From NCBI GenBank assembly GCA_013115135.1, contig JABANP010000021.1, forward strand, positions 228,325-292,324: a stretch of 64,000 nt of DNA, written 5' to 3'. The notes below the pieces were generated by a model that made no database searches, was not told the origin of the DNA, and worked only from the letters and a program-made list of their open reading frames with translations. Below, in pieces: positions 17,636-54,855 of the stretch. The stretch is from Perkinsus olseni. Taxonomy: Eukaryota; Perkinsozoa; Perkinsida; Perkinsidae. The number at the start of each line of letters is the position of its first letter. Within the stretch, counting starts at the first letter, position 1. Position numbers and translations under genes: made by a program.

Positions 17636-19313
17636 ATGACATCCCCCAGCGGCGCCACACAGGCAGCAGCGACTCTCGCCGCCGCCCTACAGGAGCAGCA
17701 GGAGCCGCCTCCTGCCGATGGCCTGGAGCCTAATCACGTTCAGCTTATCCGTAATACAGCCTTGGGCGTTATACGTAACGGTCCTCAATTCGCTGAATGG
17801 TTGCAAACCAAACGTCGTGGAGATAAACAGTACACTTTCCTCTTCAAGGGGCTCGGGCACGACTACTATCAGTGGTGCCTCTCTAATCCTGAGGAGTGTA
17901 AACGATTAGAGGATGTCGCGCAGGAGCAGCAGGCTGATGCTGAGTCGGATTCTGATGCAAGCGATAGTGGCTCTGAGTCGGACAGGAGCTCGAGGAGTAG
18001 GGACAGGAAGCGAAAGTCTAGGTCCCGATCTCGAAATCGCCGCCGTCCCCGTAGCCGATCCCGCCGTAGCAGGCGCTCAGGCAGCCGACAAAGGCATCAT
18101 TCGCGGTCTCGCAGAAGGAGGTCCCCTCCGCCGTCATCTTGGCGAAGGCGCGACGCTGAACCGAGCCGTTATAGGAGAAGATCGAGATCTCGTAGGAGAT
18201 CGCGCTCGCCCCGAAGCAGAGGTCGGTCTGGATCCAGGAACCGACGCATGGAACGATCGAGCGAATCCAGAGAGAGGTTCCTAACGAAGGCTCGGGAGTG
18301 GTCGGCGGAGCGAAGGAAGAGATCGGAAAGTAGGATCAGGCGTATTAAAGAGAGGGACGAGGAGAGGGAGAGGGAGCGCGCCAGGGAGCTACCGACTCAG
18401 AGCTCTATGTTCCGTGATCGTCAGCCGCGCGGTTATCGTCCAGGACGGGATTATGAGAGGAGACCCTTGGGAGGCAAGGGCATGGGGAGCAGCTCCTGGA
18501 ACAGAAGTCCGTCGGCAAGGCAGGTTGCCCCTCGTCGTCCGAAGCCTGTAAAGGCGAATAAGATGTATGGGTGGAGTGATGATGAGTACGTAGAAGGGGA
18601 AAGTCCGAAATCTGATGGTGATAATAATGTTGAACACCTTCCTGCACGAGAGCATGTCATACCTGATGAGGCGAAGGGGTGGTATAGGGGCTCGGACAAT
18701 CGATGGAGACGGGCTAGGATCACAACAACGCCTGTATTGACCGTGAAATTAGATCATAAGGGGCAAGTCGTTCACGCTAAGAGCAGTGCTGAGCGTCTCG
18801 CTATGTTGAAGTCGAAGCTGTTGTCGGGAGGGAAGAAGGCGGACGAGAAGGATGAATCGCCTACTGCATCGTCCCCTTCGAAGAAGGCCGAGGCTGCTGC
18901 TGCTGTTACTTCCAATGAACAGCCGTTGCGGGATCCTAGTGAAGGAAGGGAGGCAGATACTGAAGGCGACACTCCGAAGGCGTCGAGGGTGAAGGTGAGT
19001 GCAGATAAACGGAAGGCCCGTAGCAGTACCATAAACGACGACGAGGAGAAGGAGAACGGTGAGAAATCACGTAAGCGGAGAAAGGCTACCGAGGAGGAGG
19101 AAAAATCGCAGGTTGAAGAGCAGGAGGCGGATGATAAGAAATATCCGAAAAGGAAGCTCTCACTGTCACCGAGGAAGGGGGTAGTACTCTGGCTGGGGGC
19201 CTAAGAACGCCTCGTCGATGGGTTGGCTTCTTTAGGCGTCCTCGTCACCTTCGGTGGAGGCTCGACAGAAACAACTCCGTGACAAGTTATTGGGATCGAA
19301 GCGGAGCAGGTAG
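17636..19313 (+). CDS. SURP-domain SR-rich splicing factor
   Basis: This is probably a nuclear pre-mRNA splicing regulator. Exon 1 (17636-19180) opens with an Ala/Gln-rich leader. A SURP (SWAP) module follows at about residues 34-90 (VIRNGPQFAEWL, YTFLFKGLGHDYYQWCL). Then comes a long RS domain (about residues 118-270: SRSRDRKRKSRSRSRNRRR and similar), a GYRPGRDYERR stretch, and an acidic/basic C-terminal region. A 55-nt intron (19181-19235) joins phase 0 to exon 2, which encodes ASSSPSVEARQKQLRDKLLG and a short basic end with TAG at 19311-19313. Such a short amphipathic end fits splicing factors of the SFSWAP/CLASRP/U2SURP group. An alternative final intron (donor at 19311, acceptor TTTTTTTAG near 19363) could change the last residues. 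Which subgroup it belongs to is not certain. Confidence 0.8.
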
Positions 19314-23186: not shown

Positions 23187-23790
23187 ACTTCCCCACCGCA
23201 ATAAGACCTTCTTAGATGACGAGAGAATATTTAGCAGCTCACAGTCACCCTGTAATTGTTCACCTATCATGATATTATGGTTCCCGGCGTTGGTCTCAAA
23301 TCTTTTACCACAGCGCCTTCGTTCTATCTCGCCAGCTGCATCGCTAATCTACTGCGATTGTATCGGCTTATCTGTTGCTCAAGAGGGTTGAGTTGTCCAG
23401 GGTCGCTCGATTATATTCCTCTGCGAGGTTCCGACCGCTTCTGATTGAAGTTGTGAGTATCCCCGTCGTCCATCCGAAGCTCACATGCGATCGTTAGCGA
23501 GCCCGCAGCCATCACTAGCGCACGCAACACGTGGTGAACGGTCAAACGTATTGCCTGAGTCACCGCCAGATGGGGTCGTGTGAAACATCATCAGTTAGCA
23601 TCCTGAATGACTGCTCGGAGTAGACGTGGAATCGCGAGCGTCTCTTGCCGGCTCGTCGGACGATCTCTTCTGGAGCGTTCCAAAACTTTCTCTGCGGCGG
23701 AGTTCTGCAAAACTCCGAGTTTCTTCACGCGCGAAGCTCGGTCTTCCCTGCAGCCAGCAGCATCCTACCGAAATGCAAACGCAAGTAGCC
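23187..23790. other. Intergenic, no supported gene
   Basis: This lies between the stop of the Thr-rich gene and the stop of the GT47 gene on the opposite strand (convergent genes). The minus-strand frame to 23595 is the GT47 frame read past its last intron and is not coding here. Confidence 0.5.
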
Positions 23791-25925
23791 TCACAATTCA
23801 TTTGCGATGGCGATGTATGGGGAGCATTCATCAGCATCGGACCACCAGTCGAACCAGCAAGCCGCCGCGTTGACGTTGTGCATGAGCGTGGCAACCTGTC
23901 ATTGCTCGTGTAGGGGACCTCATCGGCACTCTCTACGCCTACTGTTTCGTCAGGAATGCTCTTGAGGAAGGGGTAGAGCTCAGCGAGACGCTCCTCCGGC
24001 CAGCGGATGCTCAGCTGTGACCAGTCGAGGAAAGCAGTAAAGGGGAGAATGAAGTCATCCGAAAGGATCACTGGTACACACCCTGACATCAGCGACAGGC
24101 CTGGTGCGAAAGGACTTCTGATCAACGCGCGTGCTACCCGCAAAGAAGGATTCATACAGGTGGTTGGTCCACGGGGAAGTCCCAGCGGGGGCGATGCAGA
24201 AACGAGACCTCCCCTGAACGGCGACCTTCCTCTTGATAGTCGTACATGCCACCCCACCTTGATCCCGAGGTAGTTGCCGGTAAAGCCCCCCACGCTGACG
24301 TCGGGGTATTGGGACAATTCACTCACGAGAGCATTGCGAACCTCACACCGTTTATACCTATCTCGAAGCGTCATCATGTTTCACGATGAGAGGGCTTGCT
24401 GGAGATGATGATGAACGCTCACCCTTCGTGAACCCCACCGTGACGGCCATGGAAAGTCAGCAGTATATCGCGCTCCTCTAGAGGCCTGGCGTGCTGCCTC
24501 ATGTACCTAGTCGGCAACCTCAGTCACCTACTTCCTGGAACCTCGCACATCGCTCGGCCACGGTCCGTGTGACCAGGTATGATAATGTCCTTCCACGGGC
24601 TGTAGCACTGCTTCACGTCTAGGTGATCACCGATGGGCTCGTTCCATGTGGGGCATCTTCCTGATCCACACCCTCACAGGGGACGTTAAATGACCGCCTA
24701 ACCTTCGACAAGAAGGAGGATCGGATTCGGTCTGAGGATATCATAGAAGGTGAACTGGTACCTGACCGTCAATGCTGTGGCCCCGTGCGAAATGACTTCA
24801 TCCGTACGCTCCTTGACCATCGGCAAAGAGGAAAATGTGATCGGCTCCGTCGCGGCGTTGCCACCAAGGGGAGTTGAGCAGCCACTTGAATAGAGGTTCG
24901 TATACCTTAACATGCTCCTTCTATTCAGGGAGGTAATGAGTGGCCTCTACCTCAGCTGTCATAGACTGAAGGCCCATGCCGTTTCGGGTTTGCAAACAGG
25001 TGCCGTACACTGGAACGTAGAAGAGGTCGGCGTCGGAGGGGTCTTTAGTTCGATTGGCGCTGGCAGCGGAACGCTCCTCTCCGGGACGGGCTAGGGGACC
25101 GCGGGACTCACTTGCTCAGGAACCATTTATGTACCAACACTTCCACTCCCCATTGCCCCATACCACAGAGCAGGGAGGACTGCTGCAGTCCGGTGAAGAT
25201 ATCTTCCGGTGGCTCATAAACGTAACTGCCGACCGTACCCCGCAGTGTCGAGAAGATGGCTGACTCACGTTACACCTTGAGGCTGCTGAATGACACAGGA
25301 GAAGGCTGGGCAAGCCCTAGCAGGGCGGGGTAAGTGTACGGCGTGTCCAACTGCCAGTCGGCCAAGAGGTGCTCCACCGAGGAGTCACCAGCCTCGGAAG
25401 CGGCAGTGACAAGGGACACGGCCCTCTGGTAACTGCCACTGGCGCTGGTGAACCCTCAAGGTGGAGGCACTCACAGTTTCCTGGCCTCCGAAGCGCCTTC
25501 GAATCTGGTCTCTAACGCCAGTAGGGCGTTGAGCATTATGTCGGCTAGTGGGGCGGGGCACTTCGGGGCCTGACACCCGGTGGTGCAGCGACAACGAGTT
25601 GCTGATTGGCGTACCTCGCCCGAGGCGTCCAACCTGTCGAGATAAGGTTCGACACACAGCCTGTAGATCGACGTTAGGAAGTACTGAGAGAGGTTCAGAT
25701 CTTCCCGCATGTATCTGGAGACAGTCGAGGTCGGTGCGGTAGTGAAGTCAGGCAGCTGGTCTCGGCGTGGCAGTGCAGCAGAGACGCCAATCGTACGTTG
25801 CTTGGAACTGTGCGAGGCCTCGGAAGAAGTCCTCGGTCAGGCAGTCGTCTATACCACCCGGGCACTGATTCACGAGATGATGGTCGAAAATTTACGATGG
25901 ATGGCTACCTCTAGGTGGGCGTTGT
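23791..25925 (-). CDS. Exostosin-family (GT47) glycosyltransferase
   Basis: This is probably a Golgi glycosyltransferase building a cell-surface or wall glycan. Exostosin hallmarks read 5' to 3' on the minus strand: KVYVYEPPEDIFTGL (about 25240-25200; family K.YVYDLP), MGQWEVEVLVHKWFLSK, DADLFYVPVYGTC (about 25020-24985), WWQRRDGADHIFLFADGQG (about 24865-24810), CYSPWKDIIIPGH (about 24615), then RFCIAPAGTSPWTNHLYESF plus FAG, joined by a 55-nt intron (24137-24083) to CVPVILSDDFILPF and LDWSQLSIRWPEE, the sugar-nucleotide-binding core. A 47-nt intron then leads to a WFDWWSDADECSPY terminus with TGA at 23791-23793. Upstream exons to about 25,925 encode a stem region (YLDRLDASGE, ADIMLNALLALETRF) and join in frame, but the first exon and signal anchor are not located. 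It converges with the Thr-rich gene and lies downstream of the EEP gene on the same strand. Confidence 0.8.
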
Positions 25926-27944: not shown

Positions 27945-30856
27945 CTAGCTCGAGGCAGCTGATGAACTTCGATCGCTCTCTGAAACAATCAATGGCGATC
28001 CCCCACTCAGCCGCTGGCTTCCAAGCCGACCTCGACCTCGAGGAATGGGTATGAAGTCTTCTGTAGGCCCCGGGATGAAGTCCATGGACTCGGCATCCGA
28101 ATCGCTGACCGTGCTAGATAGATGAGAGCCAGACAAACATCCATCAATGCCGCTCCCAGAGGGGCTGCTAGAGTCGCTACTGCAGCTGAGGGCCTCCTGC
28201 TGGTCGCGTGGTGACTGAGTACACTGCGAACGCTTGAACAGGGAGGAAGACAGGCTACTCGTACGCGAAGGCACTGGCAGGAACAGGGAGGTCTGGCTTC
28301 CCATTGAGACCCACTCAGCAGGATTCGATCTCAAAGATGGCACGGTATTGCTGCCTGCAGTCCCCACACGTGAGGAGATTGTCACGACCGGCACCCTATG
28401 GAAACCGTCGACAACATCTCTGACGTAAATTCGACAAGGGTCTTGGCTGATCGGCTTTGGTCGCTTCCGCATAACTTTGCCCTCGCCCCACCAGTAAGCG
28501 TAGAGACGACGGAAAACAGAAATGGTTGAACCGAGGAGCCGTGGCAGGCTTATACCCCATGCGATGACATCGATGGCTGCAAGCGCCAATTGACTCGCTG
28601 CGTCTTCGCCGGGAGGGGACTGGTTGTTACTCGGATGGGCGATCCAGTAGCTGTAGGCGACGATAGGGGTGATGTTGAGTATTGTTCCGAAGACGACCAT
28701 CCACGACCGCACCTCCATACGCCTCGCTTGGGTCTCGGTCGTGGCCGGGTCGTTCGGATAAGCACCGGGTGTACCCCAGGGAAGGATATCGCTTTGACAG
28801 ATCGCGTAGAGACCGGATCCTAGTACTAGTGTTGTTGGCAAAAGGCAGAACCAATGGAACCAGCATAGAAAGAAGATGAAGATATCATCCAAGCTAGCTG
28901 ATACCAACGGTGTTATGACGTAAGGGGCGACGACTATACACCAGGCGACCAGATTAACCCTTGGCTCGTACAGTACCACACGGACCATAAAAAAGGCGAT
29001 AGAGAGTACCCATAGGAAGCCAACGATCACCGAGACGAACATGTAGGCGTACTGTATGCCTTTAGACAGGCCTCGACATCCGATGGACAGCTGTACGAGG
29101 ATGGTGAATAGTGCAGTTAAGAGGATGGCAAGAGGTATTCGAGCCCATGGTACGCTGATAGACAATGGTGCAACTATGATACTAGTGAGAATGGTGACAC
29201 AGAAGATACTCATAACACATGTAGCCAACCTCGGAATAATAATGAGGGGGAAGGACAGGACACCGCGCCATGACCATGAGAAGCGCCTAAGGCCAGTGTG
29301 AAGGTTAATCAGAGACATGAAGAAAGTGGTGGATGAGCGTCTCGTCATCTCAATCAGATCGCTGAAGGCAAACTCTTCGGCTGAGCCCGAAACAAACTTC
29401 TCGCTCAAGCGCGATCCTTGAGTTCGGACCCCTGTTAACATATCAACTCGGTAACCAGGCGCCGCGGCAAGAGAGAGCACCCGGTCGTCGGAGACATACG
29501 CGTTGCATCGAAACGGACCATAAACCCCTCTGTTCCCCGTTTTCGTGAGGGAGACGAAATACTGATCCGTCTGGACCCGGTCTAGCCTCAGGGCGCACAT
29601 CGCCACATTGACTCTGGTCGAGTTGCCACCCAGAGCAGACTCGGAGTTGCCATCTAAGAGATCGTCGATTCTTCGTTGCATGAGGAAGCCTGCCAGCGCT
29701 GGGTTTAGAGTCATCAGGTGCGGGGCCGGTGCGATAGGGATTTGGTGGTCGCTGTCTGAGATGGTATCACCGGACACGATGGCCACATCATCAAGACCGA
29801 GGACGTCGCTGAAGCGGAGGAGGGCCGAAGGGATGGGACAAATGCCACAGTCAAGGAATACGATCTGGAGCTCTTCGGAGTCGCTGACGGTTACAAAATG
29901 GCGGGCTATGCCTTCGAGCGCCCAAAGATGGCACTCAGGCCGACGGCTTATAGTGGGACCTGACACACAGAGAATTCGAAAGTGTTTGGTTACACGTGGT
30001 GACACGACTCACTTGCTGAGCTGATGCCCGCGAACTCCTTCACGCATGTCATAACCTGCAACGGCGGGAAGGAGTTCCCTCCAAGTTGAACCACCGTCTC
30101 AAATATATGCATGTACACTGCTTGGCCATGGTCCACCGTCAATGACCCCAGTGCTCTTGCTTCTCGATCCTCAACGAACAGCCTCTTGCAGCGGTCCATG
30201 GCAGCACCATCCTTCCAGAGAGCATCCACGTTGTAGTACAGCCCCATGTGCTGGAGGTCCGAGAGTAGACTCCGAGGCCCTTCAGGAGCGCCAATGCTGA
30301 ACTCTCTTCGACCATCAATAACAGCACACACAACAAAGTCGTTCCACACGAAGTTGCCTCGGTCGCAACAGTCCTTTATGCACTCCATGAGAGAGAAAAG
30401 CGTCGAGGTGAAGCCGGTGATGTTCGAACCTTGGATGTAGCTCGCTATCGTTATCGTGATCATTATCTTTACCTTCTGCTCCGGGCTCGACACAAACCGC
30501 AGTCGGAAGCTGCCGTCCTCGACCTTACCGTGGAAGAACCTTCGATAGAAGTCTGTGTCGAACATGTTGGCGATGGGTCGTGGGAAGGAAACCCCCAGCT
30601 CCCTGTAGTCGACGTTGTAGTGACGGACAAGCTCCTCAGAACGGATGGTGATCGGGGTGTACCGCAAGAATACAAGAGGGTTCTCGGGAGGGCCTCCGTC
30701 GAAGTCGATGTCGATATAGGAGCGGTAATCCGGTAAAGTCGGATGGACCGCTGGATGCACACCGTATGATGGACCATCCGCAGAGGGGGACACAGAGGAG
30801 GGTGCTTCACTCAGTACCCGGTCCCTACTCTGGGGGTCGGCTTCTGGGGCGGCCAT
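27945..30856 (-). CDS. Chitin-synthase-like membrane glycosyltransferase, copy A
   Basis: A GT2 chitin-synthase-type protein in two exons: 30856-30013, a 53-nt intron, then 29959-27945. I chose ATG 30856 (MAAPEADPQSRD); the open frame upstream lacks another convincing start. Family features in order: FLRYTPITIRSEELVRHYNV, FVVCAVIDGRREF, MHIFETVVQLGGNSFPP then LQVMTCVKE, CHLWALEGIARHF (family SHRWLFNAF), FLDCGICP (family IDAGTKP), LNPALAGFLMQRR, SALGGNSTRVNVAMCALRLD, NAYVSDDRVL (family EDR), a multi-pass membrane region and SDILPWGTPG (family WGTKG). The family QRRRW acceptor motif is replaced by IEMTRRSS, so activity is doubtful. The tail is Ser-rich and cytosolic-looking. Two paralogues follow upstream on the same strand. 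Confidence 0.75.
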
Positions 30857-31018
30857 TGGAGAAATACTACAACAATAAGAAAGTGCGATGCTGTAGCGGA
30901 AGGGAGGAGCGAGCTGGCCAGTCAGCATGCGCACGGTAAGACACGGCAAGCTCAAGGATGAGAGAGGCCGAACACAAGACGACAAGTGAGTGAATCGGGT
31001 ATTGAACCAAAGTAAAAG

Positions 31019-33763
31019 TTACTGAATTCTACTCATAACGATACGATCGTAGACTGGTGATTCTTGCCTCTTCCTCGGGCACGGCACAAAGACCGGATTC
31101 TGGACTACTATCTTCTCACCACTGTCCTCGTTTTCTGGATAAGAAAAATCGTCTTGTGCAGAGTCTGGCATGGCAGCACCGTCCACAGTAGCCGTGATCT
31201 CTGCCGCCCGTCGACCTCCCACCAAACCAAGGATACTTTTCGAGTAACGCTGCATCGGCTGTGATAAGAGTACACCCGTTGTGCTTATCAGTATTATACC
31301 CCTCTCGGATTCATAAAAAGAGTAAAGGCCTCGGTAAAATGAAGGAATGCTACTGGAGGACGGACTAGCTGTTGTCTCAGAAAAGTCAGAGAGCCACTTT
31401 GGGACTGCATTTCTTCGAGAACTCCAAGAGTCATAGACTCGTCGTATTGCGAATACCGTAACTCCCAGAAATCGCACTGAGGTGCGTAGGAGCGCATCAG
31501 CCAGAAAAACCCACACGATCACCTGAGTGATCGGTGTCAACTTGAGTCTCTCCGTGTCGTCAACCTCATCATCGTCCAAGTCTGTTAACAAGGCCAAGGG
31601 ATGGCCAGGGTCAATGCATATGACGTAAAGCAGGATGGGCAGGAGATTCACGGCGCTGATGAAGGCCACCAACCACGAGCGTCCCTCCATCCGCATCGCC
31701 AGAGTCTCCGCCGTCCGAAGGTCAACAGGATTCGGGCCTGGAGTGCCCCACGGTAACACATCACACATGCTCACACCATAGATGGTTGAGCCGAGGACTG
31801 AGGTGGTTGGGTAAAGGAAGGCCCATTGCAGGATGCATAGCGGCAAGACCTTGAACGTAAGGCGGGAGTCGGCGAAAAGAAGAATACACCAGGCATAAGA
31901 GAAGATCATAGCGAAGACAGCTCCCAGTGATAGATAGTACTTGGCGTAGATGAGGCAATATACTAGCTTAACCCACCCTAGGCCCCAGAGGATCCCCAGG
32001 AAAAGCGAACTTGATTGGAATACCAACAGAACCGGTGGCGTGAGGTCGCCAACTCCCAACACACAGCTGGAACATGACTATCGAGTAGAGCAGCAGCGCA
32101 CAGGCCAGCGGCACCTGTTCTTCCGCAGCGAAGAGCTCGGCTCCCAATAGAATGACAAAGCACATTCCCACCAGTGCAAGTAGAGAGACACAGACATCGA
32201 TAAGACGATAGACAAGCATTAGGGCACGCAGAGGAGAGGACCATGAGCAGTGGAGCCTCTCCCATGCCGCATACAACCTTCGTGTGGCTTGGAAGATGGA
32301 GGATACATCCAGCCTCGAGGATTCTATCAGTTTCTTATAGGAGAAGTCCTTGACATTCCGAAGGACGGAGTCCTTGCGCAATGGAGGGCAAACAACCGTG
32401 GCATTAGGAAGGAGCTCAGATCTCCATCCGTCGACCACTGAGCTGAGCATCGTCCCACCATCACTGACGTACATGTTGACAGCCAAAAGCCCTACTTGGG
32501 AGCTGTTACCTGCCTTAGTCAGGACAGTGAAATACCTCTCAGGGTCCAAGGCGTCGAGACGAAAACCACATAGGGAACCTTCCATCATTGATAGGGAGCC
32601 CCCTAGGCCGGTCTCCATGGCCGCGTCGGACACAGCACGCAAACGCTGGCGAAATAACCATGCGCAAAAGGCCGGGTTCCGCAGCATAGCAGAGGCTGTT
32701 GGATACTCGAGGAGCTGCAGGCTCTCTGGCGCGCAAGTGTCGGCCGAGACGACACCGACTTTCGGCTTGCTAAGTCGAGCCAACATAACGCTAAGGCAGT
32801 CCGCGGCTGGACACATGCCGCAGTCCATCGCGATGATAGGCAGACCACCCTCGTCTGACGAACGTGATGGCATGGACATGTTACTCAAGTGCCGGGCGAC
32901 ACCCATGATGGCCCATAGATGACAGGACAATCGCGACGTGACCAGAGTACCTGCAAAGGAGAATCTTATACGAGAGGCAGACTCACTCTACCGCTGCCCT
33001 CACCTGCCGAACCCTTGTCCGGAGACTCTTTTACACAGAGTGCGAGGCGGACTGGTGGGAAATGGCCTCCTTGCATCGTGATGGTAGCTTCATAAAGATG
33101 CATACGAACAGGACGACCTCCATCCACCGTCAGTGATCCCTCGTAGTACGCTAGACGGTCATCTAGTGTAACCCTGCCCGCCCTCTCCATCTCCCCTTCC
33201 TTCTCCCAAAGCTGGGCAGGTCGGTGATACACGCCCATCCTCTCTAGCTCGCCCAGCACCGACGTCGAGCCGTTCTTCTCAAGGCTCTCGAACTCCTCTC
33301 GGCCATTCACTACCACGCACAGGACAACTCTATCCCACTTAGCTTGGCCCGAGTCTTCCAAGGTCGCCAAGTTTTCCATCACCGCCCGCAAAGTAGCGTT
33401 GAAGCCTTCCGCCGTGGAGCCCTGCATACCGCTTCCGACCGAAACAACAATGAGGAGGTCCACCTTATCGTGTGGACCATCCACGAACTTCATACGGAAA
33501 AGCGGTATTCTAGAGGCCTTCTCACTGAAGAAGGTCGAGTAGTAGTCAGAATGGAAGAGCTCCTCGATGCCTCTGGTGTCCAAGTAGAAGTTCTCATTGT
33601 CGATGTTATAATGTAGAATGAGCTCCTCTTCACTTATCGTTATCGGCGTGTACCGGACAACTCGACTGTAGCTCAGGATGGGCGGCCGTAAATCGACGTA
33701 GGACCGAAATTGCGGGGTTGCCAACATCGATTCGGGGATGGCGAACCTCCCGCAGACGGCCAC
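31019..33763 (-). CDS. Chitin-synthase-like membrane glycosyltransferase, copy B (frame broken)
   Basis: Exon 1 runs from about 33763 to 33004; a 53-nt intron (33003-32951) follows; exon 2 begins at 32950. Matching motifs: VRYTPITISEEELILHYNID, MHLYEATITMQGGHFPP then VRLALCVKE, CHLWAIMGVARHL, AMDCGMCP, SMCDVLPWGTPG. The nucleotide-binding Asp seen in copies A and C is Asn here (VVVNGREEF). The EDR position reads VSDGGTM and the QRRRW position IESSRLD. Near 32045 the membrane region switches frame between QLCVGSWRPHA and PPVLLVFQ, with no room for an intron, so one base is gained or lost: pseudogene or sequence error. The second frame then runs through several membrane helices to the stop at 31019. 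Start is uncertain; the frame is open to about 33763 and the first in-frame ATG may differ. Confidence 0.65.
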
Positions 33764-33769
33764 TCTCCT

Positions 33770-34097
33770 CTATCCCGCAGGACTGGCTCCTTAACATTTG
33801 GCTGAGGGTTAGTAAAAACTGAGACGGTAATGATGGTGAGAGCGAGGCGAACAAGGGAGGAAGTGGTGTGTGGAAAGTGTATTAGTGAGATAGATGGTAA
33901 TTAGGGAAAGAGGACAGCAATAGCAGCAGCAGGGCGTGTGGCTGAGTGTGAGCAGCAGATGGCATGCAAACCACGCAGGACCTGGCTGAAGTTATGAAAC
34001 AACGGTAACAATAACGGTAATGATATAATAGTTCAACAACATGAGCACAACAACAGGACAATAACAGTACACGAAGAAGAACGGGAGGAAAAGGCAC
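33770..34097. other. Intergenic between copies B and C
   Basis: No gene. The stretch is AT-rich and holds simple GGTAAC/AACAACA-like repetition near 33990-34060. It presumably carries the promoter of copy B and the 3' end of copy C. Confidence 0.5.
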
Positions 34098-36838
34098 TCA
34101 CAACGGAGGGAACATATCCTTATGTCGAGCAGGAGAAGGCACGAAGAAATCATCATCATACTCATCATCATACTCATCACCGCCCGGAAGGTACGACACG
34201 TCGTAGCCGTTATCATCATCAGGAGAAGAATAACTGGACTCTGGCGAGTCGGCGGCTTCAATGCCACTAGAGCCCAGCACCTTCTCAGGATCCTTGCTCT
34301 TGACCACGTCAAGGTCCATAACAACATCGTACTGACTGATGCCCGACATCTCAGGAAGAGAGGGTTTGCCACCCTCTACAACAGACCGTGTGGCGGTGCC
34401 GAAGGTCCGAAGGGCTCTGGTTGAGGCAAAGGCCAGGATACCAATGGTGCGAGGAATGACCACTACGCCGAAGAGGTAACCAGTGAGTCCGAAGAAGACG
34501 TACTCATTGGCTGTACTAACATGCTTGAGGGTGCCCTTCTGTGTAGCTTGCCCCAATATCAGCGTGAAGACAACGATGGGAAGGAGATTGGCCGCCAGCC
34601 AGGCAGCGGTAAGCCAGGACCTGGTCTCCATACGACGGGCTTGAGTGTCAGCAGTCCGAGCGGCTAGTGGATCGGGCCCAGCTGTGCCCCAGGGTAAGAT
34701 ATCAGCCATACAGACACTGTAGACAGCGGAGCCCACAACAGTGGAGGCGGGTAGCATTAGGAACCATTGTACAACGCACAGAGGCAGCAACCATAGGACC
34801 TCAATGTCGCCCAGGAGGACCATCGCGGCGAAAGGGGACGTGCATACAGCGATGAAACCGGCCGATTCCAGTGGATGATAGCCATGAGCCAAGACGCACG
34901 AGAGACGGTAGAATCCCAAAAACCATAATACGCCAAGAAGCAAGCATAGTATTCTACAAAACAGGACCACCGCTCGGGACAGAGTGTAACTGCCGCACAG
35001 GAGTTGGGAGATGACGATCGATGCTATGAGGATAACACAGGCGAACGGGAGTTGCAGATAGTCGTTGAAGTTACTCAGACCAATGATCATGATAAAATCC
35101 AGGGCGACAAACGAGAATATGTCCGCGAAAAAGCTGCCAAAACGGTATATGGCGAGGAGTAGAGAGTTGCCGTAACCGGTACAAGTCGGGTCACTCCGAG
35201 CCAGCAGTTGCCGTATACTCGAGGCCATAATGAAGGGAGACCAAGTGTCAAACCGAGAGTGCTGTATGAAGTCACGGAAAGTGAAAGAGCGAGCATTGTG
35301 TTCGAGCACTTCCTTTTTCATAGCCTTAGGATTGTCCTTGGCACCGGGGAGCAAGACAACCGTACAGGACCCATGAGCAGAGCTGGCCAGCATACTCCCA
35401 TCGTTCAGTAAGATGTTGGCCAGCAGCGGATTCATACAGTCATTATTACCGGCCAAAGTGAGCTGTGTGAAGTAAGTGTCAGTATCCACTCTGTCTAGCC
35501 GGAAAGCACACATCGCACAGTTGACGTTACTCAGATTCCCACCCAGACCGCTGTCCATAGCGCCATCCGTAGCGATACGAATCCTCTGGCGGAGTAACCA
35601 GGAGGCAAGGCTCGGGTTGGACAGTAGAATCCGTATGCTCGGAACACATGGGATTTGGTTACTGGCTGTGACTATAGTGTTGCCACTCACTATGGCCACC
35701 TTATCGCTCTGCAGCTTCTGATACATGAGTGAGAGGCAGTTGTCATCGGGACATACACCACAGTCTAGCAGGGCGACCTTAATGTCATTCCTGGAGGAGG
35801 TGACATTGGCAAAGTGCCGAGCAACACCTTCAATAGCCCAGAGATGGCAGGCCATCCGAGACGTGACGATCGGATCTAACACCAGCATAGAAAGTGAAAA
35901 TAACTTCATTCCACTACGCCCGACACTCCAGGAGGCGATCCATTAGAGAATTTCCCACAAATTCCCCACGTTAGACGCATTATACCAACCTACTTTCCCG
36001 CGTATCTTCCCCCAATACTACCTGCTGAGCTCTGATCCGGATACTCCTTGACGCACAACGCCAACTGCAGCGGTGGGAACTCGTTGCCCTTCATTTGTAT
36101 AGTACTTTCGTACAGGTGGACGAACACTTCCTTCCCTTTATCGACAGTCAGTCGGCCTTGCTTTAACGCCTCTCTATCCTCTGGATATATTCTAGCCGCC
36201 CTGTCCAACTCCCCACCTGGCTTCCACAGCTCCTCAGCATTCATGTAGACGCCCATGCGTTGCAGCTCACTCAGAAAGGAGGCCTCATAGTCCTCCTTGG
36301 CCATCTCGAACTCGTTGCGGCCATCGACCACAACGCAGACAACGACTTGGTCCCAGGCGATAAGACCGGAATCACACATTCTCTTCACGTTCCTCATCAC
36401 ACATATGAGCGTTGAGAGGAAACCATTGGGCGTGGCTCCCTGTATGCCACGGCCTACTGCTATCGCTATAGTGAACTTGACCGTTTGAGCCACGGACTCG
36501 ACAAATCGCATGTGGAAGGGCCTAAGAGAGCTCCAACCACCAAAGAAGTCCCAATAGAAGTCGGTATCAAACATGTCCTGTATTCCGCGCAGGTCGATGC
36601 CCAAATCAGCATACTCGACGTTACAGTGTCGCACAAGCTCCTCATCTCGGATTGTGACTGGGGTGTAGCGGACGAAGTGACGATTGAGACGCTTCTTCGG
36701 GCAGAAGTCTATGTAGGAGCGGTAGTTAGGGTTATAGGGGTTTATAAAGGGGTGAGTGCATGATACCTCACTCAAGGGATGATGGGTAGTAGTAGCAGTA
36801 GTAGTCTCGGGGAGGCTGTCACCACGTCGGAGACGCAT
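34098..36838 (-). CDS. Chitin-synthase-like membrane glycosyltransferase, copy C
   Basis: Exon 1 is 36838-36022 (ATG 36838, MRLRRGDSLPE). A 146-nt intron (36021-35876) follows, then exon 2, 35875-34098. The architecture equals copy A: FVRYTPVTIRDEELVRHCNV, VVVCVVVDGRNEF, FVHLYESTIQMKGNEFPP then LQLALCVKE, MACHLWAIEGVARHF, LLDCGVCP, GLGGNLSNVNCAMCAFRLD, and a WGT box at ADILPWGTAGPDP. The EDR box is LLNDGSM and the QRRRW box IQHSRFD. At least seven hydrophobic segments follow (for example FFADIFSFVALDFIMIIGL, FCRILCLLLGVLWFLGF). The cytosolic tail is acidic and ends KDMFPPL. A hydrophobic frame runs upstream of the chosen ATG to about 36960 but has no ATG before a stop. It is the first gene of the array in the direction of transcription. 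Confidence 0.75.
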
Positions 36839-47195: not shown

Positions 47196-50100
47196 ATGAA
47201 CCACGACAACGAAAACGAAGGTACTGGTGATAATCGTGAGATAGCCATTCAGACGGCTGAAGTTACGCCTCCGGGGACAGCTCCCCGCCCGCTAACCCCT
47301 AATTCTGGTGGTGATCCTTCGTCAGGATCACATTCGACGGCACCACCCAACGCCTCGGCACAGACGTCTGCTACCTCTAACTCTAGCACCACGCCTAATG
47401 GTTCGACACCTTCTACTAATACGCCTATGGTTACGACTGATTCTACTTCGAGTCCTCCTACTGACCGTAGTCTTCCTGCCCGGACTAAGAGACTTTTTCG
47501 TGCCCGTTCCCGAAAAGTTTGCTAATAAGCCTATGGACAGTATCAGAGATTGGTTCGAGTCCTACGAGCTCTACACCTATGGTAACCTTTACGATGATCA
47601 TTCACGTGCCCGTTTCCTAGGTGCTTTCCTCACTGGTGATCCGGCTAATGTTTGGAAGACCTAGCAACACTCGCAGCTGAGCCGCTAGACGTGCAACATA
47701 GGGTCAGGAGGTAGTGGAGTGCGATAGAGACCGTTTCAACCGGCGCTCCGCTTTGCCATATACAGTGAGCACAGCACAGCATGACCGACCATGTCACTAA
47801 GTTCTGTCTGTGAGGGACGTACGCGAGGGAGATCAGGCATTGGTAGACGAACAGACGGGGATGAACGCGCGATGAAGATCCAGGAGGAGGTGTGCGGCCC
47901 GGGCAGGTCTCCGACGGAGAACGCTGCCCGGGCCGCAAGATTGACGTGTGACTTCGTGGTTGAGCATAGACTCACCGGCTTGGAAGGTTAAGAAAACTGA
48001 ATCCCTGGGCGTCATTCGTACTGGCAAACATCTTCTTGAGCAAACCGGAAGGCGAAAATATGCGACATAGTACCTTATACCTCGAGCAGTAGTCCCGTTT
48101 TGTAGTACGGGTACATGCCAGCCTGTGATTCACAGGACGGGATTCCTAAGTCGGGACTCCCGACTCGGGAGTCGGGAGCATCACGATATCAGACCTGTAC
48201 ACGGCCACTAACGGCCTCCTTGTCCCGAGCCTAAACACCGAAAACCGAAGCCCAGTCCGGCTGCCATGGCGTGCGCTTTCGTGTTTATGTTAGCGCGCGC
48301 CCCCAAACACGATTTTCGTAGGTAGAGCCGCAACCAACGCGATTGAACCTCCCATACATTAGGATATGGATCTTATTGCCGTTGGGAATATTCTTGTCAA
48401 TTTTCGTGTTAAATGTGACTCATTTGAAGCCTGCACAGCGCACGAACGAAAATTGTGAAACGTGCACCATTATGGCAGCGGAGCGTAGTTCTGTCCCATT
48501 TGTGCGCCGCGTCACCTGAAATTCCCACGAGAAATGGTTGGTTTGTGGCGTGGATGTTTTCGTTTGGCATGAGACTGTGCAGGATTACTCATATGCATGG
48601 TAAGAGTACTCGTGCAAAGTTTGAGAAAATTTCATGGGCTAATTTCGAAAATCGCTCCGATTCGATGCAGATGTAATATGGTTGTTTCCGGTGGCAGAGA
48701 CCACCCGCGCTCGCCCTAGGCCCTCGCGGGGCCCTTCCCGCTCGGGCTAACATTTGTGAGGTACCCCGCATGGAACTCGCCCTCCGTTCACCTAGAGAAA
48801 GACGTCCTAAGGCCGCGAGCGCAAAAATGAGAGAAAACCGTGGAGCAGGAGCGCGCTGCTGGTCAGAGTCACGCCGGTAGGGCAGTCGAGTAGTGTCCAC
48901 AGCGTCGACGGTCTGCAGCTCGGTACGCTCGAACGTACGAGCGGCAATACATCGAGTGTAGGGCCGACAGATGTGACTGGCGCAATCTACGATGGGACGG
49001 TGACACGCAGCTGTCAGTAGGGTATGGCGATCCGGGCTCCCCCACAAGTGGGGACCCTGCCCGGATCGCAAGGTTACGTTAAGTGTGTAACAGTCGCCGG
49101 CGGGCGTGCGCGGTTGACGATGCGCAGTGGCATGGAGCGCGCGCCCTGACAGGTTTGGTGGACTTGCGAGGCAAAGTACGCAACAAGAAACCGATTGTGG
49201 CCCGCGAGGGCATAATGATGAATATCAGGATATAATTTATACGCCGAACAACCCACCGGCTAGAGAAGAGCAGTGCTAACTCGCTCATAACGTATAACCG
49301 CACGGACGCGGCTGTGGCGTGCCCTTTCTCGCGTATAGTAGCGCGCGCCCGTAATCCCCAATTTTGCCTCCTGCGGCGGTGCCAGGAGCCTCGAGCATTC
49401 GAGCGGCTAGGCTATGGGTCTGTAGGCACTGTGGAGTCTTGTGGCGAAGATCCAAGCGAAACCCGTTGCATCTGAGTACTCTACAGCGATGATTCGCAAA
49501 AGTGTGGAACGTGCGCCATTTTGAAGGCGGAGCGTAGTTCTGTCTCTTTTTGCGCCACGTCACGCGCGCGGCCCATGAAAATAAGTTAGTGTTTAAGTGT
49601 AAACGTTTCGTTTGAGACGAGATATAGCAGTGACACCATTTTAAGATAAGTAGAGTCGATTTGCAAAGTTTCAGCGAATTTTAACGGCTGGGAGTCGAGA
49701 TGGGTGTCTGGGTATAGCTTGGAACCTTTAGATATACACGGTCACTCTCCCGACCATTTAGCGCGCGCCTCGCTGGGGCCCTTCCCGCTCGGCGACATTT
49801 CCCTGGGCATACAGCATGGCGCTAAACCCCCGTCCACCCAGTGCTCCAAGACCAATTATGAAACGGACAAGGCAGTTCTCATTAAGACCTTTGAGAAGTG
49901 CCGCTTACCTGATGAAGCTTGGAGTCGGTTTGACAACTACCAGTGGGATCGTATCCAACCTCTGTCCGTTTACGCGGCCGCTCTTTCACGGTACCTGAAC
50001 GAGTACAATGACTTGTTGAAGCCCGAGAATCGGTTGTCTTCACCTGCTAGGGAGACGTTGTTGGTCGAGAAGTTGTCGAAGTTGGCCACAGGTGCGGCGA

Positions 50101-50561
50101 AGGCTGAAATCCGCCGAGCACGTCCCCGAACTGCTGCTGATGTTTGTGATCTTTTGGGTGCCTACGTCGACAATAGTGACCAGACTGGTGTTAATGCCGT
50201 CCGCTCTATTGAACCTAAGTTAGATGCTAGCATCGAGATGTTGTCGAAGTTACTTGGAGCGTTTGAGGGTGCTCAAACGCGGCAGGTCGAGCAGTTTGAT
50301 CGTCTTTGTGCTGTCTTGGGTACTCCACAACAACGCCAATTCAGCGGGCAAGGCCCGCAGAACGGTCAACTACGACGCCGAGGTCCTCGAAGGTGTGGTA
50401 TATGTGCAGGGCCGCACCTTACCTTGGAGTGCCAGCACAAGAAGTTTTCTACCGGTTGCGCAATCTGCGGTAACACAGAGCACTTCGCCCGTAACTGCCC
50501 GCTCCGTCCTACCTTTTTGGCTGGTATACAGGGCAGTGTTCCCGTTCCTTCGGGAAACTAA
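47196..50561 (+). CDS. Gag, interrupted by insertion and frame breaks
   Basis: ATG 47196 opens a Ser/Thr/Pro-rich N-terminus (MNHDNENEGTGDNREIAIQT). At a T-run (about 47490) the frame shifts to FFVPVPEKFANKPMDSIRDW and runs to NVWKT at 47660. There the 2.19-kb insert interrupts. The gag frame resumes exactly after it (NYETDKAVLIKTFEKC, from 49854), and removing the insert plus one AAGACC copy restores WKTNYETD in frame. The C-terminal part contains YQWDRIQPLSVYAAALSRYL (capsid-like) and zinc knuckles at about 50394-50500: CGICAGPHLTLEC and canonical CAICGNTEHFARNC. It ends at 50561. It forms the virus-like particle and binds RNA in this family. Confidence 0.85.
47893..47938. repeat. G/C-rich hairpin in nested element, unit 1
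   Basis: Arms GCGGCCCGGGCAG and CTGCCCGGGCCGC pair perfectly over 13 bp around a short loop. An equivalent hairpin is found in unit 2 at 49027-49070. Confidence 0.85.
49027..49070. repeat. G/C-rich hairpin in nested element, unit 2
   Basis: Arms GCGATCCGGGC and GCCCGGATCGC pair perfectly. The loop holds a second small stem (CCCCAC/GTGGGG). Arm bases differ from unit 1 while pairing is kept, and the flanking CAAG.TT.ACGT is shared. Confidence 0.85.
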
Positions 50562-50579
50562 TTCGACGGCCGGATTGCG

Positions 50580-53500
50580 GCTCCCGGTCGTCGGCACCGA
50601 TCTCTCTCTGTACTTTTGGTGAGGCTAATGGTCCGTTTATTTTTGCCCGTTTATCTGCTGGAGAAGCCCGTACTCCGTTTGTTAGGGCTCTTATCGATTC
50701 TGGTGCTCGTATAACGGTGGTTCCTAAAAGGAATTTGCCCAAGGGCATGCGACTCCAACCTGTACTCACTCATGCGGGCTCCGCTGACCCCGGTAATCCT
50801 ATTCTTCTGTTGGGCTCTGCGATTGTAAAATTGTCGCTGTATGATTCGCCTAATGGTAATTGTAACGTCTACTCCAGCCGTGCGCCGCGGGCTGGTAGTA
50901 CCTGTGTAAGTTTTGAATTTAAGGTCTATGTAGTAGAAGACTTAATTTGTGATATGTTGTTGGGCTTCGACTTCCTCTGGCACTATGGTCTTACCTTGGA
51001 GATGGCGGAAGGTCATGTCCGCTTGGTTGGTACTCGTGATCCTTTGGCGGGTCAGTATCGTGAACCTCTCCCAGAACCTGATGCACGAAGTGTTAGCGTG
51101 TCGTTGCCCTTTGCTCTACTTGGAACTACTGGTTCGACTGTGAAGCCGGTAGTTGAACCCGTCTCTCCCGAACAAGCCCAGGATGTGCTTACCCGAGACG
51201 TTTCCACCCAGACTTCTGGGGTGGTTGATGAGTCTGTGCAGACTATGCCGCCTACTTCTACCCCGAGTTCTTTGGACAAGCCCGTCAAGAACCCCGTTCG
51301 TTGTGCTAGGCCTCGTGATAGTCCGCCTGACTTTACGGTTGGAGGGGTATCTGATTCACTTCAGCTCCCCTCCCGCCACTCTGATGATGTCCGCTCTCAC
51401 CTTGGTTTTGGTGACGACGACGATGACTCTAGCCCCTCTCTGGCTCAGCGTAGAGCCTTTGCCGAAGCCGGGGCTCCTATCTGTCTGCTGCAACCTCCTG
51501 ACCCTTACGACTTCTATGACGACCCTGAGAAGGGAGAGCACACTGGTTTCGAGCCCTGGCCTGCTGACGATCAAGAAGTCTACGACGAGTTCGAGAATGA
51601 TGATATTGGTGGCAATTTGGACGACTATGCTGTTCCTCTTCTACCCGGCCCAGAAGAGCCTGATGTCGTCTTGCCCGACCTACCTGTTTCTGAACGTCCC
51701 GAGCTCCGTCCGATCCAAGATTTGTGCAACGACTTCTCGCAGCTTTTCCGCAACAAGATTGGTTTTGTCCGCTTGTCAACCATGACATTAAGACCACTGA
51801 CGAGAAGCCGGTAGCGCAGCGTCCGAGGCGAGTACCCCATAAGTGGCAAGCTGATATTAGAGGTCAGATCAATGACATGCTGAGAGAGGGATTATTCGGC
51901 CAAGCACGAGTGCTTGGCGCTCACCTGCGTCTACGTTAAGAAGAAGACCGGTGGTGTCCGTATCTGCGTAGATTACCGTGAGCTTAATCGGCGATCTCAG
52001 ATGTCCGCTTACCCTCTTCCTCGACCTGACTTCGTCCAAGATGACTTGAAGGGTGCCCGCTTCTTCACCTCTCTCGATCTCAAGTCTGGTTACTGGCAAG
52101 TACCTGTGTCCGCTGCTGATGTCGCCAAGACCGCCTTTTGCCCTGGTAATGGATTTCCGCTCTACGAGTTTGTTCGTATGCCGTTTGGCCTACATGACGC
52201 CCCCGCCACCTTCCAGAAGCTCATGGAGGATATCCTTGGTGACCTACCGTTTGTCAAGATTTATCTTGATGACATCCTGATCTTTTCAGCGGACATGGAG
52301 ACTCATGTCCGTCATCTTCGCGTGGTCTTCGAGAGGTTGTCCGCCGCCAACATTACCTTGGGTGCTAGCAAATGCGACTTTGCTATGGAGGAGATAGCTT
52401 ACCTGGGCCACATTTACGACAAGTATGGTATGCGCCCTGATCCAGACCGCGTCCGTTGTATCTCTGAGTGGCCGCTACCTGAGACGGTTCGTGATGTTCG
52501 GCGGTTTATGGGACTGGTTGGCTATTACCGCGCCTTCATCCCTCGGTTCACTGCTATGGCCAAGCCGGTTCAGGACTTGGTTAGTCGTTGTGCAGATCAA
52601 CCTGACACTATCCGTGTTCACTGGGGAGAGGAGCAGCAGAGATCCTTCGAAGCCTTACGATCTGCACTAGCCGGTTTGCCCGCTCTTGCCTACCCTGACT
52701 TCGACGCCCCGTTCCAGCTTTGTTGTGATGCGAGTGATTTCGCGATTGGTTCAGTTCTCGAGCAAGATCACCGTCCTCTGGCCTTCTTTTTCCCAAGTCC
52801 TCACCGGTGCTCAGCTTCGGTGGCATACCTATGAAAAAGAAGGCTATGCACTCGTCCGCTCACTCGAGAAGTTCCGTCACTACTTATTGGACACTCGGTT
52901 CAAGGTCACTATTTTCTCTGACCATCGACCACTACAACAACTGGCGAAGTCGAAGTCACCCCCGAGTTGAACGTTGGCTACTGGCAATGCAGAATTTCCG
53001 CTTTGAAGTCCGTTACAAGGAAGGTGTCAAGAATATTAATGCTGACGCCTTGTCCCGTCCCCAGTTGCCTGCTGCGCCCAAGCCCCCGCTTACTAAGACT
53101 TGCCCCGTCCGCTCTGGTGTTGAGGTTATCCCTCCGGACTCTGTGGTACCTGAGGAAGATCCTGAAATGTCTGGCCTGCTACCGGACACTATGGTGAAGC
53201 CTCTCATTGCCACGGTAGTCTTGTGCCCATTATGGTCGTGGGATAAACTCCGAGAAGCCCAAGAGCAAGACCGAGTAGTTCGAGAAGTTCGTGATCGAGT
53301 TTTGGTAGACGCCCCGCTTGGTCGCAAGGAGTTTACCTCTCGGCTATATATGCCTTATAGACGTATCTGGTCGGTCTTGGACGTTTGTGATGGAGTTCTG
53401 GTGCGCCTCCTGAAGACGGATCCCTTGGAACCCGTCCGCTGTGTAGCCGTGGTTCCTACCTCCTTGCGGAAGGAAGCTGTTGCTTATTATCATGATGAGA

Positions 53501-54855
53501 AGGGTCACTTTGCCGAGAAGCGCATGCTTGAGAACATGAAGCCTACGCTGTATTGGCCCAACATGCACGTCGAGATCAACGACTACTTACAGCAGTGCAC
53601 TGGTTGTACTGTTGCCCGTCCTGGTCGTCCGATTCCATCCCCTTTGGTTCCGGTTCCGGTAGGGAGGCCTTGGCATACGTTAGCTGCGGATTACTTGGAG
53701 ATTACCCCGCCCGCTGACGGCAAGAAGTACTTGTTAGTGTTGCAGGATTATTTCACCAAGTGGGCTGAAGCTTATCCACTTCAGCGGGCGACGGTGGAAG
53801 AGACCCTGCCTCACCTCTTGAACCTCTTCTCCAAGTTTGGCCCTCCTGTCCGCATACATTCAGATCAAGGCCCCCAGTTTGAGTCTATCCTCTTCAATCG
53901 GGTCATGGAGGCCTTGGGGATAAAACGGTCGCGCTCATCCGTCTATCATCCCCAGGGTAATGGTCTAGTTGAGCGATTTAATCGTTCGTTGCTCGACATG
54001 CTACGCCGACATATTGGGATTCCCGATTGGGTTTCTCATTTGCCCGCTCTTCTCTGGGTGTATAATACGTCGATACACTCGGTGACTGGCTTCAGTCCGT
54101 ACAAGCTACTCTTCGCTCGTGATCCTCCGTCCGACTTCCTGCCCATGACGATGTCCGCTGCTGATTTGATGATCGACCCGGCTACTTATGAGGCCTACTC
54201 GGAAGCACTACGAGCCTATTTGACGGATCAGGTCGACTTGGCTATTACTCAAGCAGCGGGCAATGCTAAGAGGCACTATGATCGGAATAATGCTCCTCAA
54301 GGATTCTTTGTTGGCGCTCGCGTTCTTCTACGGCTTATGAAGCACCAGAGGCCTACTAAACTCTCACCTATGTGGGAGCCGAACTGGTTCATCACGCAGA
54401 TTGTGGGTTCGTCTGATCCTATCAAGGTTGTCCGCTTGTTCCATCTGCCGTCGAAGCGAGTGAAGGTCTTGAGCGTGGACCATATCAAGGTTGACCCTTT
54501 GCAACCTGATAACATTCAGGAGATCATGCAGAGCTTCCCCGAGCCCCTACGTGATGCCCGTGAACCAAACCTAGCTAGTACCCATGGTTCTGCTGTTGTG
54601 TCGTCCGATGGCCTTCACCCAGAGCAACCTCATGTTCAATTCGAAGGTCTTGTCGGAGCGGGCACTGCGGGCGTCCGTCCGTTACAGGCTCAGCAATTAC
54701 CGGTTAATCCTGATGGACTCATTGGTGGAGAACGTATGGTATATGGTTCGAGTGGTGCTCAGCTACCTCGCTGGCAAGGGCTTGATGCGTTCCGTCCGCG
54801 ACCTGTGGAACCGGCAGGACCTCCGCAAGTATACGGCTTACGTATCGATACCTAA
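50580..54855 (+). CDS. Pol polyprotein: protease, RT, RNase H, integrase
   Basis: Aspartic protease: ALIDSGARITVVP (about 50690-50730) and MLLGFDFLWHYG. An acidic linker follows to about 51750. Reverse transcriptase: PLVNHDIKTTDEKP, VYVKKKTGGVRICVDYREL, FFTSLDLKSGYWQ, RMPFGLHDAPATFQ and the catalytic VKIYLDDILIFS (about 52255). RNase H: CCDASDFAIGSVLEQ, WHTYEKEGYALV, FSDHRPLQQL. Integrase: an HHCC zinc finger (H of KGHFAEKR and CTGC near 53600), catalytic residues in LAADYLEI, HSDQGPQF and GLVERFNR, and a GPY/F-type C-terminus. The frame changes at about 51760, 51895, 51922, 52790 (T-run) and 52965 (C-run), each by one base. Translation as one Gag-Pol or with frameshifting cannot be judged until those are verified. 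Confidence 0.88.

What the first reader, a model, noticed from the sequence alone, without database searches (positions are those of the whole stretch)
27945..36838. Tandem trio of chitin-synthase-like proteins with decayed catalytic motifs
All three copies keep the overall chitin synthase plan (RYTP.TI lead, PP.Q...C.KE, CHLWA, DCG.CP and PWGT boxes, multi-pass membrane part). The QRRRW box essential in known chitin synthases is IEMTRRSS, IESSRLD and IQHSRFD. The EDR box is partly kept only in copy A (SDDR). Established knowledge: these residues contact donor, acceptor or metal. Inference: they are pseudoenzymes, regulators of a true synthase, or enzymes for another polymer.
Basis: partly seen in the sequence, partly recalled or inferred. 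Interest (0 to 1): 0.8.

Follow-up and report, generated by a model that had tools for sequence, protein, structure and literature searches.

The report
Three inactive-looking chitin synthase relatives
A shellfish parasite keeps three neighbouring genes that share ancestry with its own chitin-making enzyme; their proteins have lost most of the parts needed to make chitin yet are still preserved by evolution, so they probably do a different, perhaps helper, job.

Summary
The window is Perkinsus olseni. Three tandem two-exon genes on the minus strand encode chitin-synthase-derived proteins (hhalign probability 100, E 2.8e-52 against the parasite's canonical synthases; one clade, 100/100). The genome also has a 14-intron synthase with all nine motifs and three more places with a QRRRW box.

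Of twelve residues reported to matter in Phytophthora Chs1, A keeps 4, B 3, C 3 and the canonical enzyme 12. TMYNE, QxxEY, VLPGA and QRRRW are gone in all three; the general base survives only in A; some uridine-side residues remain.

They are not junk: silent sites are saturated but first and second codon positions conserved, and C is about 80% identical in P. chesapeaki. Databases say 'Chitin synthase, class 2', probably wrongly. B has apparent frame breaks here but is open in another P. olseni record.

Best reading: ancient, selected pseudosynthases, perhaps partners or regulators of the true synthase (inferred). AlphaFold models were too poor to judge the pocket.

The parts
27945..29959 (-). 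copy A, exon 2 (rest of GT domain, hydrophobic segments, Ser-rich tail, stop)
   Evidence: whole protein 97% identical to P. olseni P0004
30013..30856 (-). copy A, exon 1
   Evidence: GT-AG intron 29960-30012 (53 bp), same junction in P0004
29481..29489 (-). copy A, position of the EDR box, reads DDR
29334..29348 (-). copy A, position of the QRRRW box, reads MTRRS
31019..32950 (-). copy B, exon 2, with a frame break near 32060 (frames 32987-31968 and 32077-31019)
   Evidence: open in P0005 of another P. olseni record
33004..33727 (-). copy B, exon 1 as open in the window (P0005 starts about 70 bases further upstream)
   Evidence: intron 32951-33003 (53 bp)
32454..32462 (-). copy B, position of the EDR box, reads DGG
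32307..32321 (-). copy B, position of the QRRRW box, reads SSRLD
34098..35875 (-). copy C, exon 2
   Evidence: P0001 98%, P. chesapeaki P0002 77% identity
36022..36838 (-). copy C, exon 1
   Evidence: intron 35876-36021 (146 bp), same junction in P0001 and P0002
35394..35402 (-). copy C, position of the EDR box, reads DGS
35247..35261 (-). copy C, position of the QRRRW box, reads HSRFD
34131..34145 (-). C-terminal tail motif F[VI]PxP of copy C (also in the tails of A and B)

Best explanation
WELL SUPPORTED: the three genes are old tandem paralogues that share a chitin synthase ancestor with the canonical P. olseni enzymes. They lost most chitin synthase active-site and channel-entrance residues, and the proteins are still under purifying selection. 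INFERRED: at least B and C cannot make chitin, and A very probably cannot; they are pseudosynthases. INFERRED, less sure: they sit in the membrane as chitin-synthase-shaped subunits that keep part of the uridine pocket and the WG of the SWG loop, and act as non-catalytic partners or regulators of the true synthase, as CHPF does for CHSY in chondroitin synthesis. A plausible, untested origin: an intron-less copy of an intron-rich synthase gained one intron, then triplicated.
For: Homology: hhalign of the trio alignment with two canonical P. olseni enzymes gives probability 100, E 2.8e-52, 642 columns, 29% identity. The trio profile finds Phytophthora sojae Chs1 (7wjm) at E 3e-7, its best stretch collinear over the QxxEY, VLPGA, EDR, QRRRW and SWG positions. 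All PDB fold hits with E <= 0.001 are chitin synthases: 9 of 9 for the C model, 13 of 13 for A. Loss: of 12 PsChs1 residues whose mutation is reported to impair or abolish activity, A keeps 4 (D291, D382, D496, W742), B 3 (D382, L359, W742), C 3 (D291, D382, W742); canonical C48 keeps 12 (read from the alignments). Selection: between copies fourfold sites agree in 27-33% (shuffled third positions 26-28%), first and second positions in 45-66%; random sequence of the same composition would hold about 35 stops in A and 34 in C, none is present. In copy C, motif columns (kept and changed together) agree between P. olseni and P. chesapeaki in 37 of 40, other columns in 515 of 627. Places with a QRRRW box elsewhere in the genome: four. 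Origin: canonical C48 has 14 introns and none at the trio's single intron site. Known chitin synthases PsChs1 and CaChs2 are dimers; CHPF mainly stabilises CHSY (abstract).
Against: No expression, localisation or interaction data. In PsChs1 the two protomers work independently and dimer-interface residues vary widely among chitin synthases, so heterodimerisation can be neither predicted nor excluded. A keeps the equivalents of the general base D496 and of R538. Motif columns are not lost more than other conserved columns, and columns of C that changed from the chitin synthase consensus agree between species no better than average (55 of 68). The search with A found no P. chesapeaki orthologue, though it is word-limited. 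B has frame breaks in this assembly. The tree program warns of long branches.
Confidence: 0.5

Rival explanations
1. Changed enzymes: one or more copies, most likely A, still bind UDP-sugar and hydrolyse it or transfer to another acceptor, making something other than chitin.
For: A keeps the D291, D382, D496, R538 and W742 equivalents. In all three the E495 position is Asp, a conservative change. 68 columns are fixed in the trio with residues that the compared synthases lack, some of them in inserts.
Against: TMYNE, QxxEY, VLPGA and the Trp of QRRRW are gone in all three. B and C lack the general base; PsChs1 D496A has no activity. The E495 position in A is Asp; PsChs1 E495A loses about 95% of activity.
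Confidence: 0.28
2. Decaying genes with no function.
For: B shows two apparent frame breaks against P0005 in this assembly.
Against: A and C are open over 952 and 864 codons; codon positions show constraint; C is kept at about 80% identity in P. chesapeaki and 79% in a partial third sequence; B is open in another P. olseni record.
Confidence: 0.07
3. Working chitin synthases with compensating changes.
For: Database name 'Chitin synthase, class 2'; PF01644 match above cut-off for B and C.
Against: 8 of 12 (A) and 9 of 12 (B, C) experimentally important residues changed; PF01644 matches stop before the QxxEY, VLPGA, EDR and QRRRW positions; canonical synthase genes exist in the same genome.
Confidence: 0.04

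Closest known systems
Canonical P. olseni chitin synthase on contig C48 (L019), with relatives on C491, C508, C531
   Same: Same order of domains; N-terminal RYTP.T box; a shared stretch of some 30-40 residues between the G[MVL]Y and TVD...HL[FY]E boxes that is much shorter in PsChs1 and ScChs1; 25-29% identity to A, B and C over about 680 aligned positions
   Different: C48 has all nine motifs and 14 introns; the trio has 1 intron, lacks four motifs completely and has C-terminal tails of about 100-175 residues
Phytophthora sojae Chs1 (7wjm), S. cerevisiae Chs1, C. albicans Chs2
   Same: Best solved relatives by sequence (PsChs1 and CaChs2) and by fold search; DxG of DVGT and WG of SWG kept
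   Different: TMYNE, QxxEY, VLPGA, QRRRW lost; EDR lost in B and C; 9-residue insert in the KASKL loop
CHPF/CHPF2, stabilising partners of CHSY1/CHSY3 (abstract read)
   Same: Proposed analogy only: a polymer-making glycosyltransferase with a related subunit that has no polymerising activity
   Different: Different glycosyltransferases (human chondroitin synthesis); no evidence here of a complex

Membership tests
chitin synthase (GT2, Division 1 type) | Common descent with chitin synthases | tested here: met
   hhalign E 2.8e-52; profile hit to 7wjm E 3e-7; tree, with long-branch warning
chitin synthase (GT2, Division 1 type) | Pfam PF01644 over its cut-off | tested here: inconclusive
   B 31.5 and C 37.6 bits over the cut-off of 25; A 17.5, and 19.6 for P0004, below it
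chitin synthase (GT2, Division 1 type) | Signature QxxEY, EDR, QRRRW (review) | tested here: not met
   A FLMQR/DDR/MTRRS, B WLFRQ/DGG/SSRLD, C WLLRQ/DGS/HSRFD in the window (database copy of C: NSRFD)
chitin synthase (GT2, Division 1 type) | Uridine-tub Asp of DGR and DVGT | tested here: inconclusive
   DVGT Asp kept in all; DGR Asp kept in A and C, Asn in B
chitin synthase (GT2, Division 1 type) | Chitin-synthase fold with multi-pass membrane part | tested here: inconclusive
   Fold hits at E <= 0.001 are chitin synthases only, but the models have pLDDT 36.5 and 38.2; hydrophobic segments are present
chitin synthase (GT2, Division 1 type) | Makes chitin | not testable with these tools
   none
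pseudoenzyme | Homologue of an enzyme lacking residues needed for catalysis | tested here: met
   4, 3 and 3 of 12 PsChs1 residues kept
pseudoenzyme | Protein maintained by selection | tested here: met
   codon positions, A, B (open part) and C; copy C conserved across species
pseudoenzyme | No catalytic activity | not testable with these tools
   none

The most novel reading that the evidence does not exclude
The former active site has become a new site. All five trio proteins compared (A, B, and C of three species) share four cysteines that the compared synthases lack, within two columns of the KASKL, DVGT (two: DCGxCP) and VLPGA motifs, beside the retained His of HLW. They could form a metal or redox site that senses the cell state and gates the true synthase, with the shared tail motif F[VI]PxP as the docking point.
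Probability: 0.1. Interest if true: 0.75.

Novelty: new variant of a known kind. Interest (0 to 1): 0.5.

Why it matters
Non-catalytic relatives are known for some glycosyltransferases (CHPF, abstract), but I found no paper describing one in the chitin synthase family (listings, titles and abstract beginnings only) and none on a Perkinsus chitin synthase (listings, the latter 25 of 42). Only open-access papers are held. If the trio partner the true synthase, they would be lineage-specific regulators of wall building in a mollusc parasite that has a thick-walled stage (passage). In any case, annotations that count them as 'Chitin synthase, class 2' are probably misleading.

Full report
What the window is. 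Copy C matches a protein named 'Chitin synthase, class 2 [Perkinsus olseni]' at 98% identity, a P. chesapeaki protein at 77% and an unnamed partial sequence at 79%. The window lies in contig C124 of a 61.5 Mb, 968-contig assembly. So the finding concerns an alveolate parasite of molluscs, not a fungus.

The genes. Three genes lie head to tail on the minus strand. A: 30856-30013 and 29959-27945, 952 aa. B: 33727-33004 and 32950-31019. C: 36838-36022 and 35875-34098, 864 aa. All share one GT-AG intron at the same place, inside a 9-residue insert of the KASKL loop; the database proteins of P. olseni and P. chesapeaki show the same junctions. B is interrupted in this assembly near 32060 and differs in frame near its 5' end from P0005, which reads through. 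I cannot say whether that is an assembly error or a real difference between strains.

They are chitin synthase relatives. PF01644 matches B and C over its cut-off, and A below it. Profile comparison with two canonical P. olseni synthases gives E 2.8e-52 over 642 columns. The trio profile finds P. sojae Chs1 at E 3e-7, aligned through the active-site boxes from QxxEY on; copy C alone found nothing relevant in the PDB. Fold searches with weak models returned only chitin synthases at E <= 0.001, 9 of 9 for C and 13 of 13 for A. A nine-row tree puts the trio in one clade (100/100) and, rooted on PsChs1 and ScChs1, next to the canonical P. olseni enzymes (98/97); the program warns that long branches meet.

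The same genome has canonical synthases. A QRRRW-type pattern hits four places: C48, C491, C508, C531. The C48 gene, joined by hand from 15 exons (14 introns), carries TMYQE, DGR, KEFNAGKL, DAGT, QNFEY, VLPGA, EDR, QRRRW and SWGTKG. C491, C508 and C531 are 94-96% alike in DNA. There are 11 GH18 (chitinase-family) matching stretches and no PF01522 deacetylase match. Beyond these places, the trio and a partial copy on C348, the searches listed no other relative, which is a lower bound.

What the trio lost and kept. The nine motifs and their roles come from a review (passages) and the PsChs1 paper (passages). From the alignments: TMYNE is lost in all (judged against C48 and C491 only). DGR is kept in A and C and is NGR in B. 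The KASKL loop is changed and enlarged. DVGT is DCG(I/M/V). QxxEY is lost. VLPGA is lost. EDR is DDR in A, DGG in B and DGS in C. QRRRW is MTRRS, SSRLD and HSRFD (the aligner places a gap at the Trp; read without the gap it is S, D and D). SWG is PWG. Of 12 PsChs1 residues reported as impairing or abolishing when mutated (D291, D382, L359, E495, D496, E432, Y433, V452, P454, R536, W539, W742), A keeps 4, B 3, C 3 and C48 12. So the acceptor and channel side is destroyed and the uridine side is partly intact. The partner residues E432/R536 and Y433/W539, which pair across the channel in PsChs1, are lost together in every copy.

Against a simple story of active-site decay: columns invariant in PsChs1, ScChs1, C48 and, where present, C491 are kept equally in and out of the motifs (A 15 of 30 against 40 of 89, B 12 of 30 against 34 of 89, C 12 of 30 against 35 of 89). 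The TMYNE motif is not in those counts, because the PsChs1 and ScChs1 segments used do not cover it. The whole protein diverged.

They are maintained. Between copies, fourfold sites agree no better than chance or little better (27-33%), while first positions agree in 45-55% and second in 57-66%. A and C carry no stop, where random sequence of the same composition would hold about 35 and 34. In copy C, motif columns (kept and changed together) agree between the two species in 37 of 40 cases and other columns in 515 of 627; columns of C that changed from the synthase consensus agree in 55 of 68, about the average. So the former active site is constrained like the rest, not more. The trio has 68 fixed columns with residues that the compared synthases lack (columns in inserts included), among them C282, C311, C314, C395 and C639 (numbering of P0001). 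Ten of the 68 lie within two columns of a motif, and four of those ten are cysteines, at motifs 3, 4, 4 and 6. Enrichment of cysteine is weak (P 0.044) and was looked for after the fact. All three tails hold an F[VI]PxP motif; the stretch downstream of the canonical C48 gene, read in three frames, has none.

How it probably works. Supported: descent, loss, constraint. Inferred: no chitin synthesis in B and C, and very probably none in A. Inferred with less support: a partner or regulator role, by analogy with CHPF (abstract) and because PsChs1 and CaChs2 are dimers. The retained uridine-side Asp residues would allow UDP-sugar sensing. Copy A is the one most likely to keep some chemistry. Heterodimer formation cannot be judged from sequence, since interface residues are highly variable among chitin synthases.

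Origin. The canonical C48 gene has 14 introns and none at the trio's site. An intron-less copy that gained one intron before two tandem duplications explains this simply; intron loss by other routes is not excluded.

Novelty. I found no paper joining Perkinsus and chitin synthase in a relevant way (listing of 9, 25 of 42 listed), nor chitin synthase with pseudoenzyme (1 unrelated paper) or with catalytically inactive and paralog (listing of 6). I saw titles and abstract beginnings only, and only open-access papers are held.

Noticed in passing
window 49650-54855 (+): Pieces of an LTR-type retroelement: zinc-knuckle gag-like ORF, reverse transcriptase, RNase H and integrase domains in neighbouring ORFs.
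   Followed up: no
window 23595-24380 (-): ORF with the end of an exostosin GT47 domain (42.8 bits, cut-off 33.4), another glycosyltransferase within about 4 kb of the trio.
   Followed up: no
window 17636-19204 (+): 522-aa ORF with a SURP module and a long Arg-Ser-rich stretch, splicing-factor-like.
   Followed up: no
L020, L021, L022 (contigs C491, C508, C531) and L023 (C348): Copies of a second canonical chitin synthase, 94-96% alike, on separate small contigs, plus a partial copy; recent duplications or unresolved haplotypes.
   Followed up: partly
tails of copies A, B, C (C: window 34131-34145): Shared C-terminal F[VI]PxP motif, twice in A; next to acidic residues in A and C.
   Followed up: partly
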